From: Methanoculleus receptaculi
Lineage (GTDB): Archaea; Halobacteriota; Methanomicrobia; Methanomicrobiales; Methanoculleaceae
DNA length: 64,000 nucleotides
Direction: 5' to 3'
NCBI RefSeq assembly: GCF_033472595.1
Contig: NZ_CP137642.1
Span: 620,001 to 684,000 of the forward strand
Shown: positions 8,591-45,933 of the stretch, piece by piece
How the letters are laid out: every line of letters begins with the position of its first letter
How positions within the stretch are numbered: the stretch's first letter is position 1
Made by a program: the position numbers and the translations under genes
The notes under the pieces: generated by a model
What the model saw: the letters and a program-made list of their open reading frames with translations, nothing else
Databases searched by the model: none
Told to the model about the DNA's origin: nothing

Positions 8591-8660
8591 GCAGGGGTGA
8601 AGGGGGCGGAGCGGGAAGTCCCCACCGTTCACGATGGGGATGAAAGCGGAGCCGCCCTTC
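8591..8660 (+). repeat. Left-end hairpin of TnpB element 1
   Basis: A 70-bp block (GCAGGGGTGAAGGGGGCGG, then a CCCCA...TGGGG hairpin, then GGATGAAAGCGGAGCC) matches, with a different hairpin loop, the block at 25326-25398 upstream of the second tnpB. A simpler version (AAGCCCCC...GGGGGATGAATGCCG) precedes the third. The position upstream of tnpA/tnpB suggests the left end of an IS605-like element. Confidence 0.65.
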
Positions 8661-19473: not shown

Positions 19474-19934
19474 GTTTTGCGCCGCCGTTGACGATGGAAA
19501 ACACCTCCGGTCGAGGTCATACCTTTCCCCGCAGGTGGTAGGGTGATATTCTCCTCACCACTCATTTGTTTTTGACCACCAATGGTCAACCCCGTTCATG
19601 CAGGCTGATGGCGGGGGGTGCGTGCGGGGGGATGCTGGATCGATATACCGCTCCGTCCTGGCTGCTCTCTCATCATGAGCCGGGTAGATTTGCGCCGCCA
19701 GATGGACCCTCCCTGCTGGAACCGCATCACCTCCCCCGCGCCCTTGCAAAAAACTACATGATGCCCACAAGGCCACATGCATACCAGATGAAAATATCTA
19801 GAGCGCCATTTTCATACGAAATAGGAGGAACCCTAGCGCTGCTACGCTCCAGGATCAGGCCCTCGGAATATGGCGGCGCCTCTCTCTGCCGTCATACCCC
19901 ATCAAGAAAGCGTTTTTTGCTGTTATACCGTTAT
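19474..19934. other. Gene-free stretch with a degenerate repeat
   Basis: No convincing gene. Around 19757-19815 the minus strand can be read as SYENGALDIFIWYACGLVGI, which resembles YENAAPIFIRYACGDAGII on the minus strand at about 43575-43640. The rest has shadow-like frames without ribosome sites. It separates the frh operon from the converging SpeD-like gene. Confidence 0.5.
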
Positions 19935-25325: not shown

Positions 25326-25398
25326 GAAGGGCGGCTCCGCTTTCATCCCCGCGCCTCTCGACCGGGGTCTTCCTGCTCCGCCCCCTTCACCCCCTGCA
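25326..25398 (-). repeat. Left-end hairpin of TnpB element 2
   Basis: Reads on the minus strand GCAGGGGGTGAAGGGGGCGG, a GGAAGACCCC...GGGG hairpin and ATGAAAGCGGAGCCGCCCTT. Apart from the hairpin stem and loop it is nearly identical to 8591-8660. It ends about 60 bases before the tnpB ATG. Confidence 0.65.
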
Positions 25399-25560
25399 AG
25401 ATAAACATAGGTTTTTTGCAGAAATACGGCTGCATCCGGCAAATCCTCCCGCGCCGGGGCCCAGGTGCTGGATGGGTGGCAGGTGCCTGCCTGCGTGATC
25501 ACCGCTGCCGGATCTCATGCGGGCGGATGCCCGGTGACGGTGAGACTCCGCCGGCCGTTC

Positions 25561-40555: not shown

Positions 40556-41429
40556 CCTCCTGCGCAGACAGGGCTACCAGTTCATCACCCCGGCCTCCTC
40601 GGCGGCCGTGAAACCATGTATGTGGTGCAAGCGGGCGCTAAAAGGCGGGGAGATGTGCTACAAGGCGCAGTTCTACGGCATTGAGAGCCATCGTTGTGTC
40701 CAGATGACCCCTACCCTGCGGTGCAACCAGCGATGCCTCTTCTGCTGGCGGTCGTTTGAGCACGAGGTCGTGGAGGAGGAGGAGTGTCCGCCGGAGGTCA
40801 TCATCGCAAACCTCCGGCGCGCCCAGAAGAGAGCCCTCGCGGGATACAAGGTATCGCCCCATGTCACGCCGGAACGGTTCGCCGAGGCCCTGAATCCCAC
40901 GATGGTCGCGATATCCCTCTCAGGGGAGCCGACCTGCTACTCACGTCTCCCCGAACTGGTGGACGGTCTCAACAGGGAAGGCTACACAACCTTCCTGGTC
41001 TCAAACGGCACCAGGCCGGAGGTTCTCGTCCGGTGCCGGCCATACCAGACCTATGTCTCCCTGGACGCTCCCGACCGGGAGACCTACCTGCGCCTCTGTC
41101 GACCAGAGGAGGATTACTGGGACCTGGTGCTGGAGAGCCTTGCAGGGCTTGCCGGGCGGCGGTCGGCCATCCGCACCACCCTGGTTCGCGGTTACAACGA
41201 CTTCTCTCCGGAGCGTTACGCGGCGATCTACCAGGATTCCGGTGCCAGGTTTGTGGAGGTAAAGGGTTATATGTATCTTGGGTACAGTAGAAACCGATTG
41301 CTGAGGGAGCAGATGCCGGAACACGCTGAGATCCGGGAATTTTCAGAGATGGTTTCGCAGCACTCGGACTATTTCATTAAAGATGAGAGCCCGCTTTCCC
41401 GTGTTGTCTGCCTGGAGAGAGATGTATGA
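40536..41429 (+). CDS. taw1: 4-demethylwyosine synthase (Taw1)
   Basis: 297 residues from ATG 40536, overlapping argS by 20 bases. Radical SAM enzyme that forms the tricyclic base of wyosine at G37 of tRNA-Phe. Two cluster sites are visible: [20 protein letters not shown] at the N-terminus and the SAM motif [13 protein letters not shown] (CxxxCxxC). [11 protein letters not shown] and [10 protein letters not shown] follow. Length and order fit the archaeal enzyme. Its stop overlaps the sepS start (ATGA). Confidence 0.95.
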
Positions 41430-43018
41430 GATTTGATGTGGAAGAGTTCAAAAAGAGGGCTAGAGAGGACTTCGAGCACGCCTGGTATGAGGGGCCGTCT
41501 GTCCTGACGCCGCCGTGGGTCTCGGGCCGCTATCCCCGGCTTCGCTACTCCCGGGCGAGGGAGCACCCGATCTTCGATATTGTGGAGCGGCTTCGCGAGA
41601 CATATCTCGCGATGGGGTTTGACGAGGCGATGAACCCCCTGATCGTCGAAGAGTCTGATATATACCGGCAGTTCGGTCCTGAAGCAATGGCCGTCCTTGA
41701 CCGGGTCTTCTACCTCGGCGGTCTGCCCCGGCCGAACGTCGGGATCGCAAGAAAGCAGATCGAGGAGATCGAGGCTATCCTTGGCCGTGCGCTCACTGCC
41801 GGAACCGAGGAGAGGCTCCGTGAGACCCTCCACGGCTATAAGAAAGGAAAGATCGACGGTGACGAGTTGGTGCACGAACTTGCGGCCGTGCTCGAGGCCG
41901 ATGATGCTGCCGTGGTGCATATCCTTGATGCGGTCTTTCCGGAGTTCCGCGACCTTGCTCCGGAGTCGTCGCGCAACACCCTGCGCAGCCACATGACGAG
42001 CGGCTGGTTCCTGACGCTCTCCTCTATCTGGGACAGGCAGCGGCTGCCCCTCAGGCTCTTCTCGGTGGACCGGTGTTTCCGGAGGGAGCAGGAGGAGGGG
42101 CCAACCCGCCTGATGGCCTATCACTCGGCCTCGTGTGTCGTTGCCGGGGAGGATGTCACCCTTGAGGAGGGGAAAGCCGTCAGCGAGGCGCTTCTTTCGG
42201 CGTTCGGGTTCACTGAATTCAGGTTCCAGCCCGACGAGAAGCGGTCGAAGTACTACATGCCTGGAACGCAGACGGAGGTCTATGCACGCCATCCCTCGCT
42301 CGGGTGGGTGGAGGTCGCTACGTTTGGTCTCTACTCCCCGTCGGCGCTCGCGGAGTACGGGATCGGAGTGCCGGTGATGAACCTGGGTCTTGGGGTGGAG
42401 CGTCTTGCGATGATCGTCTACCAGTCAAACGATATCCGCCAGTTGACCTACCCGCAGTTCTTCCCGCAGGCGATCTCCGACCGCGAGATCGCCGGTGCAA
42501 TCCACCTCCGTGAAGAACCGGCATCGGTTGCCGGGCGACGTATGGCAGAGGGTATCCGGGCCACTGCTGTGGAGCACGCCGCCGCCCCCGGGCCGTGTGC
42601 GTTTGTTGCCTGGAGTGGCGAGATCGCGGGACGGGAGGTTGAAGTGGTGGTCGAGGAGACTGAGTCCAACACGAAACTCTGCGGTCCTGCCTGCTTAAAC
42701 GAGGTCTTTGTCCATAACGGTTCGGTGCTCGGTGTACCCGATACAGCGAAGTGGGCAACCGTCCGCCAGGAGGGCGTCTCCACCGGGATCACCTACCTGG
42801 ACGCTGTGGCCGGGCTTGCAGCCGCCAGGATCGAGGAGGCGGCGAGGTGCGGGGAGGAGGTTCGTGTCCAGGTGAAGATGGCAAAACTCCCCTCTGATGT
42901 CAACCTGCGTATCGAGGACTACGTGATGCGCTACATCACCGACCACAATAAAAAAGTGGATCTCCGCGGTCCGGTCTTTCTGACGGTCAGGTCGGTCATC
43001 CGGAAGCCGGAGGTTTGA
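41426..43018 (+). CDS. sepS: O-phosphoserine--tRNA(Cys) ligase (SepRS)
   Basis: 530 residues. SepRS charges tRNA-Cys with phosphoserine, the first step of the indirect cysteine route found in most methanogens; SepCysS then makes Cys-tRNA. Class II motifs: [20 protein letters not shown] (motif 2 region) and [10 protein letters not shown] (motif 3); the phosphoserine site TSGWFLT lies at about residues 191-197. The C-terminal anticodon-binding domain follows residue 370. No pscS or cysS is in this window. Start overlaps taw1 (ATGA). Confidence 0.96.
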
Positions 43019-43909
43019 TCCTGGATGATTGGGTGTTGCCCTTCCTGGATGAGTAATATGAGGCCATCAAATCAACGATTCTGAATCTAATCCCGCCACC
43101 TTTTTCAGGTGGCAGGTGCGAGCCCATCAAACCAGTTCGATCATGGTTTGACGCCATCGGATCGCCACCGTGGTGAACGTTTTTTGCGGCTGACCTCCTC
43201 CATCCATGGGCGGCCGGTGCATGATGACAGATCCTGGAAAACCGTGGCAGCGACGGAAACGGGATCTCAGGGAAGTATCTCACCGAGAACGTGGTAAGGA
43301 GATCTCCTCCCGTCGAGGGGGAATCACCTGCGGGGGTGGGGCTCGCCGGGGAGGAGGGATGGAACATCCCCCGCCCCTGTCTTTTGCGTGTCATCCGAAA
43401 ACCTCTCTCGCTGGATCGCCCCCTTTCCCGGGGGCGGGCAAGTGTCTGGCGATTGCCAGTGGGAAGCCGCGCCGGGGAGGTTTCTTGCCTGAAACCGTGT
43501 GAGGGGATCACCTCTCTTGCGGTGTATCGATGGGGAAACCCTCCCTCCCCTGCCCTGAGATGCTCCCGGAAACCAGATGATGCCCGCGTCTCCACAGGCA
43601 TACCGAATGAAGATGGGGGCAGCATTCTCATACAGACCCCGGCCGCCCCGGATCCGGATTGGAAGAGGTGGGCGGCGATCCACACAGGCAGGGGCACAAT
43701 CCCATGAACGTGGCAAAAGAACTCCAATTTCAGGATATTTTCTTCTGGCGTCTATAAACAACCGCCTTATCTCTGAATTCTGCCCCGGCCTGAAGTATTG
43801 GTTTGATGGCCTCTACTGCACTTTATGAGACCCCTGGCAGGTGAGCAGACATCTCTGGGAGGCGAGGTTCAACCTGACCCTGCCGGGTGTGAAGGCCGGT
43901 AAGGTTATG
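43019..43909. other. 890-bp non-coding stretch rich in repeats
   Basis: No supported gene. It starts with a perfect hairpin that may terminate sepS (GCCACCT-TTTTC-AGGTGGC, 43095-43113). A 12-nt sequence GAGGCCATCAAA at 43060-43071 is inverted at 43802-43813, and a close variant (GAGCCCATCAAACCA) lies at about 43120-43134. The minus strand at about 43575-43640 encodes YENAAPIFIRYACGDAGII, related to the repeat at 19757-19815. A 145-codon minus-strand frame (43324-43761) has no start context and looks like decayed sequence. Confidence 0.55.
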
Positions 43910-43934: not shown

Positions 43935-43950
43935 TACAACTGGTGTGACT

Positions 43951-45664: not shown

Positions 45665-45933
45665 TTCATCCTGATCTCCGTCTTTGCATAAATTCAAACT
45701 GACTCCCGCGGGGTGAAAGTGAACCACCCCGGCGCCTGACAGACCGGTCGCCGGAAGCGAACATTTTCAAGCCGGCATCATGTGGTTTTTTGCAATTCGC
45801 CGCGCATACGACCTGGAAAAAGGTGGCGAGTTTATATTTCAGATCGCTGATTCGATACCACGCGCATGTAGCACCTCCTCCACCTCAGCGGCCATCCACC
45901 TAAATACTCTCAGTGACAATCGAGAGGAGAGAG

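What the first reader, a model, noticed from the sequence alone, without database searches (positions are those of the whole stretch)
43019..43909. Repeat-rich non-coding block with inverted 12-mers and a conserved peptide-like repeat
GAGGCCATCAAA at 43060 is mirrored at 43802 and a variant lies at 43120, enclosing about 750 bp. Inside, the minus strand keeps a YENxAxxIFIxYACGxxGI reading that also occurs at 19.8 kb and, weakly, at 61.05 kb. Conservation at the peptide level suggests remnants of a small-protein family or an unclassified mobile element.
Basis: partly seen in the sequence, partly recalled or inferred. Interest (0 to 1): 0.6.

Follow-up and report, generated by a model that had tools for sequence, protein, structure and literature searches.

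The report
G-quadruplex-carrying mini-transposon in a methanogen
The block is a worn copy of a small, gene-less jumping element in a methane-producing archaeon (Methanoculleus); the element borrows its ends from a full transposon and carries a G-rich repeat already known from this genus, which shows how such four-stranded-DNA motifs can be moved around a genome.

Summary
The repeats are real. The 43060-43813 block is a non-autonomous, MITE-like element of 754 bp with 12-bp terminal inverted repeats, inserted downstream of pheS in a 1.98 Mb Methanoculleus genome. Its ends match those of a ~1535-bp DDE insertion sequence (7 copies in the genome, 5 with a long open frame). Related elements occur throughout the genome (28 left-end matches). 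One, 647 bp, has a perfect 5-bp target duplication and a clean empty site in a close relative (G002). The window copy is also absent from G002, and homology resumes at the exact outer base of the right repeat; its own target duplication is no longer recognisable. The cargo is a ~267-bp unit, single or in tandem, holding the recurrent G-quadruplex sequence reported for Methanomicrobiaceae (PMC8044849). That unit is genus-wide (24 of 25 genomes), whereas the transposon ends are almost confined to this species, which also has the insertion sequence. The 'conserved peptide' is not a protein: it is a decayed copy of a separate ~67-74-bp dispersed element whose two ends are those of a 1520-bp IS110-family element. 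New variant of a known kind.

The parts
43060..43813 (+). Whole MITE-like element, 754 bp, between 12-bp inverted repeats GAGGCCATCAAA...TTTGATGGCCTC
   Evidence: absent from the orthologous site of G002, where homology resumes at 43814
43060..43119 (+). Outer left end (L0); first 24 bp match the left end of the DDE IS (GAGGCCATCAAATCAACGATTCTG)
   Evidence: score 36, 0 of 2000 shuffles
43120..43194 (+). Inner left end (LE): terminal repeat plus inverted GGTTTGA like the right end of the IS; family of 28 genomic matches
43208..43405 (+). Internal repeat unit, first copy (modules C, B, A1 in family order)
43332..43358 (+). Recurrent potential G-quadruplex sequence GGGGGTGGGGCTCGCCGGGGAGGAGGG, followed by a C-rich tract
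   Evidence: architecture close to that in PMC8044849
43419..43538 (+). Second, incomplete repeat unit (A2, C, B; the G-rich half of A1 is missing)
43576..43641 (-). Decayed copy of the ~67-74-bp IS110-derived repeat; source of the YENxAxxIFIxYACGxxGI reading
43621..43685 (+). Module M2, inner part of the common right end (12 copies found)
43703..43813 (+). Right end (RE) with terminal TTGGTTTGATGGCCTC; recurs at 387839 and 1254344 in the genome
41426..43018 (+). Upstream gene, read by me as phenylalanyl-tRNA synthetase alpha chain (pheS), ends 41 bp before the element; name not tested against a family library
   Evidence: its 3' part is conserved in 24 of 25 genus genomes

Best explanation
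The block is an old, degenerate copy of a species-restricted MITE-like family. The elements have no gene. They are bounded by inverted repeats cognate to a resident DDE (PF01609) insertion sequence and were most likely moved in trans by its transposase, making 5-bp target duplications. Between the ends they carry a Methanoculleus-wide ~267-bp repeat unit with the recurrent G-quadruplex motif; the unit can expand in tandem or be lost by internal deletion. Shown: shared ends, copy number, target duplication and empty site for a sibling copy, absence of this copy from the orthologous site of a relative, distributions of unit and ends, open transposase frames. Inferred: trans-mobilisation by this IS, capture of the unit by the IS ends, and any effect on neighbouring genes.
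For: IS copies of ~1535 bp with the same ends and 5-bp duplications in four (AATGT, ATACT, GATAA, CCTGC; a fifth shows GATATG); long open frames without stops in five copies (a 408-codon frame in three of the six read). Element ends align to IS ends above all 2000 shuffles. Sibling 1275077-1275723 has ATAAT on both sides and G002 holds one ATAAT at the uninterrupted site. In G002 the window site has 51 bp where this genome has 793, and homology resumes at 43814. Order LE-unit-M2-RE recurs. LE: 28 matches here, 1 weak match each in G002 and G021, none in 38 others; IS protein: here and in G021, G014, G023 only. Unit core A1: 91 matches here, 1-65 in 23 other Methanoculleus, none in 16 genomes of other genera.
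Against: The window copy has no recognisable target duplication, and its two left ends in tandem (L0 then LE) could mean two events. Of the other elements checked, only 447484 and 1303763 show a believable 5-bp duplication, and only with a one-base shift. 20 of the 39 unit-bearing clusters found lack any trace of the ends, so most unit dispersal in the genus is not explained by this MITE. Most copies are only ~70-86% alike, so recent activity is not shown. G002, a close relative, has the unit but no helper IS and at most one LE.
Confidence: 0.88

Rival explanations
1. Remnants of a small-protein gene family; the conserved peptide is the signal.
For: A peptide-like reading shared by the block and 19.8 kb.
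Against: Copy lengths that break any common frame, a stop directly after the motif at 19.8 kb, DNA identity 94-99% across the whole ~74 bp including both ends in seven copies, ends identical to IS110 ends, no Pfam match to ORFs of the block over the cut-off.
Confidence: 0.02
2. A host regulatory or chromosome-structuring repeat (G-quadruplex/hairpin unit acting near gene ends, like REP/BIME sequences), with the inverted repeats incidental.
For: The unit is genus-wide, strongly conserved in its G-rich/C-rich core, and PMC8044849 reports such motifs only between genes, half of them tail-to-tail.
Against: Here only 4 of 38 clusters lie between convergent genes, 16 divergent, 18 tandem; it does not explain the ends, the target duplication or the empty sites. 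It may hold for the unit itself alongside the MITE reading.
Confidence: 0.07
3. Two separate insertions side by side (a solo IS end at 43060-43119 and an element at 43120-43813).
For: The inner LE begins with its own full terminal repeat; the 1275077 sibling starts at LE, not L0.
Against: The L0-LE tandem recurs with the same ~60-bp spacing at 137857, 1655314 and 1676260, so it looks like a subfamily with a doubled end.
Confidence: 0.15

Closest known systems
Prokaryotic MITEs (review PMC10969869), archaeal examples SMN1 and SM3A of Sulfolobus (PMC3718332)
   Same: Gene-less, multicopy, terminal inverted repeats shared with an autonomous IS, short target duplications
   Different: Carries a pre-existing, genus-wide satellite-like unit with a G-quadruplex motif, in 0 to several copies; no Methanoculleus MITE was found in the papers searched
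Recurrent potential G-quadruplex sequences (rPQS) of Methanomicrobiaceae (PMC8044849)
   Same: Four G-runs with a single-base first loop, CTGAC central loop and single-A third loop, 3' C-rich tract, intergenic, many copies
   Different: The paper does not mention mobile elements; here the motif sits in a ~267-bp tandem unit and, in this species, often inside elements with transposon ends. No tail-to-tail excess here
Prokaryotic satellites (PMC6749651)
   Same: Tandem arrays of a long non-coding unit dispersed over an archaeal genome; the paper lists 21 satellites in M. marisnigri
   Different: The paper found dispersed non-coding long-repeat satellite families only in Leptospira interrogans and Methanocella conradii and gave no mechanism; here part of the family has a transposon vehicle
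IS1182/IS5-type DDE insertion sequences (for the helper IS)
   Same: PF01609 domain above cut-off; weak matches to NCBIfam IS1182 and IS5 models
   Different: Far below both NCBIfam cut-offs (35.8 of 270 bits, 21.9 of 110), so family assignment is open

Membership tests
MITE | Terminal inverted repeats | tested here: met
   12-bp exact inverted repeats at 43060 and 43802
MITE | Ends shared with an autonomous transposon in the genome | tested here: met
   all three ends exceed all 2000 shuffles against at least one IS end; IS transposase present
MITE | Target-site duplication, this copy | tested here: not met
   AATAT versus TACTG; no exact 5-mer within 5 bp of the ends. The copy is old; the family feature is tested in the next row
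MITE | Target-site duplication, family | tested here: met
   ATAAT at 1275077-1275723 with single-ATAAT empty site in G002; 447484 and 1303763 with a one-base shift
MITE | No transposase gene | tested here: met
   No Pfam match over the cut-off for ORFs in the block
MITE | Multicopy | tested here: met
   28 LE matches; 14 LE-RE pairings listed, a few of them overlapping
MITE | Movement in trans by the cognate transposase | not testable with these tools
   Needs a transposition assay
Methanomicrobiaceae rPQS | Four G-runs with loops 1 / 3-5 / A, central loop CTGAC in Methanoculleus | tested here: met
   40 of 50 unit cores have a PQS, 32 with loop CTGAC; the window copy is a degenerate version with a 6-base central loop, CTCGCC
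Methanomicrobiaceae rPQS | 3' C-rich tract | tested here: met
   30 of the 37 cores with that architecture
Methanomicrobiaceae rPQS | Preference for tail-to-tail gene pairs | tested here: not met
   4 of 38 clusters convergent (simple gene calls); a tendency in the paper, not a definition
Methanomicrobiaceae rPQS | Folds into G4/triplex | not testable with these tools
   Shown for synthetic oligonucleotides in the paper only
IS1182/IS5 insertion sequences (for the helper IS) | Family model over its cut-off | tested here: not met
   only the general DDE_Tnp_1 domain passes

The most novel reading that the evidence does not exclude
IS-derived ends have captured a genus-wide G-quadruplex satellite unit, so that transposition seeds new sites at which the unit then expands in tandem: a two-step route (transposon seeding, then local amplification) for spreading non-coding satellites and G4 motifs in an archaeal genome, possibly with effects on neighbouring transcription.
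Probability: 0.4. Interest if true: 0.6.

Novelty: new variant of a known kind. Interest (0 to 1): 0.42.

Why it matters
Recurrent G-quadruplex sequences of Methanomicrobiaceae were read as possible transcription signals from their repetition and position. In this species at least part of that repetition comes from a mobile element, so copy number alone is not evidence of function. It also gives a concrete vehicle for dispersed satellite arrays in a prokaryote, for which a survey (PMC6749651) found only two cases and no mechanism.

Tried and rejected
Rfam and tRNA scans of the window: no hits. Pfam on ORFs in the block: nothing over the cut-off. IS200/IS605 as source of the peptide repeat: three Y1_Tnp copies exist, but the repeat's ends match IS110 instead. 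Conserved RNA fold of the unit core: 7 pairs, covariation term -0.03, 1 pair with a two-sided change, so no support beyond a G/C hairpin. An excess in divergent intergenic regions (16 of 38 against 57 of 306 neighbouring pairs) is not claimed, because long gaps are themselves more often divergent (6 of 21 in the window). An empty-site check for the stand-alone array at 1114 kb failed because its flanks lie on two contigs in G002.

Full report
Setting. The window lies at C1:620001-684000 of a 1.98 Mb single-contig genome. All genomes with matches to the block fall in one genus, and named records with the same transposase at 94-99% identity include Ca. Methanoculleus thermohydrogenotrophicum, so the host is taken to be a Methanoculleus. 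The block starts 41 bp after an ORF I read as pheS (41426-43018) and ends before a small ORF at 43945.

Observation. The 12-mer is strongly over-represented in the genome, 76 against 8 control matches, and the block has 84 matches elsewhere. They are not chance.

Anatomy. Iterated profile searches over the fetched stretches split the block into modules that recur in one order: LE, then the repeat unit (A2-C-B-A1, ~267 bp per tandem step in arrays), then M2 and RE. Elements with both ends range from about 190 bp, where only traces of the unit remain, to about 650 bp. The window copy has an extra outer left end (L0), a second incomplete unit and an IS110-type repeat, 754 bp in all. The L0-LE arrangement recurs at three other loci. 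The IS110-type repeat is also present in the copy at 2.45 kb, after the same truncated A1, so it was probably acquired before that subfamily spread.

The helper. Six IS copies of 1.43-1.54 kb were read in full; they carry the same kind of ends, with 5-bp duplications in four and a 6-bp match in a fifth. The protein has a DDE_Tnp_1 domain over the Pfam cut-off and falls far short of the NCBIfam IS1182 and IS5 cut-offs. The genome search shows a seventh copy, and five copies with a long stop-free frame. L0 resembles the left IS end over 24 bp; LE and RE resemble the right IS end, in the family consensus including an inner inverted GGTTTGAT.

Insertion. The sibling at 1275077-1275723 is flanked by ATAAT on both sides, and G002 reads straight through with one ATAAT. 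For the window copy, G002 has 51 bp between flanks where this genome has 793, with homology resuming at 43814. The left flank is too diverged to fix the breakpoint and no duplication survives.

Cargo. The A1 core reads GGGGGAGGGGCTGACGGGGAGGGGG followed by a C-rich tract. This is the rPQS of PMC8044849, including the CTGAC loop that the paper gives for Methanoculleus. The core is found in 24 of 25 genus genomes and in none of 16 from other genera of the order. LE is nearly confined to this genome, as is the helper IS, apart from three relatives. The simplest order of events is that the unit is old and was captured by IS-type ends in this lineage; that order is inferred. Twenty of 39 unit-bearing clusters show no ends, so another process also spreads or preserves the unit.

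The peptide. The stretch is a decayed member of a ~67-74-bp repeat present in seven near-identical copies here and in several relatives, most often in G002. Its first 19 and last 15 bases are identical to the two ends of a ~1520-bp IS110-family element, and the 19.8-kb copy is absent from the G002 site. Copy lengths break any common frame.

Judgement. Ordinary in kind (a MITE), less ordinary in cargo. The literature search was limited to open-access papers; no earlier report of a Methanoculleus MITE or of rPQS on mobile elements was found there, which is not proof of absence.

Noticed in passing
window 19748-19821; also genome C1 1859053, 1398955, 1628705, 366795, 1566691, 96938: A ~74-bp dispersed repeat whose first 19 and last 15 bases are the exact ends of a ~1520-bp IS110-family element (about 160214-161733; second copy at about 806.1-807.6 kb). 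It looks like a minimal non-autonomous derivative of an RNA-guided IS110 element; ~67-74-bp versions occur in several Methanoculleus species, most often in G002. The 19.8-kb copy is absent from the G002 site.
   Followed up: partly
genome C1 1114113-1115371, 1501633-1502882, 1485341-1486512, 925880-926896: Tandem arrays of 4-5 copies of the ~267-bp unit, most of them without any transposon ends; how they formed is unexplained.
   Followed up: partly
window 45805-45857 (minus strand): A solo left-end-like sequence (L0, 83% over 47 bp) about 2 kb from the element.
   Followed up: no
window 8594-8653 and 25333-25405: Two further short stretches with matches at several of the fetched repeat loci; other dispersed repeats of this genome.
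   Followed up: no
L077 (JAKOVF010000242.1): A contig labelled Chloroflexota MAG encodes the same transposase at 99% identity; possibly a misbinned Methanoculleus contig, or a very recent transfer.
   Followed up: no
genome C1 1514924, 1789129, 1458709: Three IS200-type TnpA genes (140-codon frames, Y1_Tnp).
   Followed up: no
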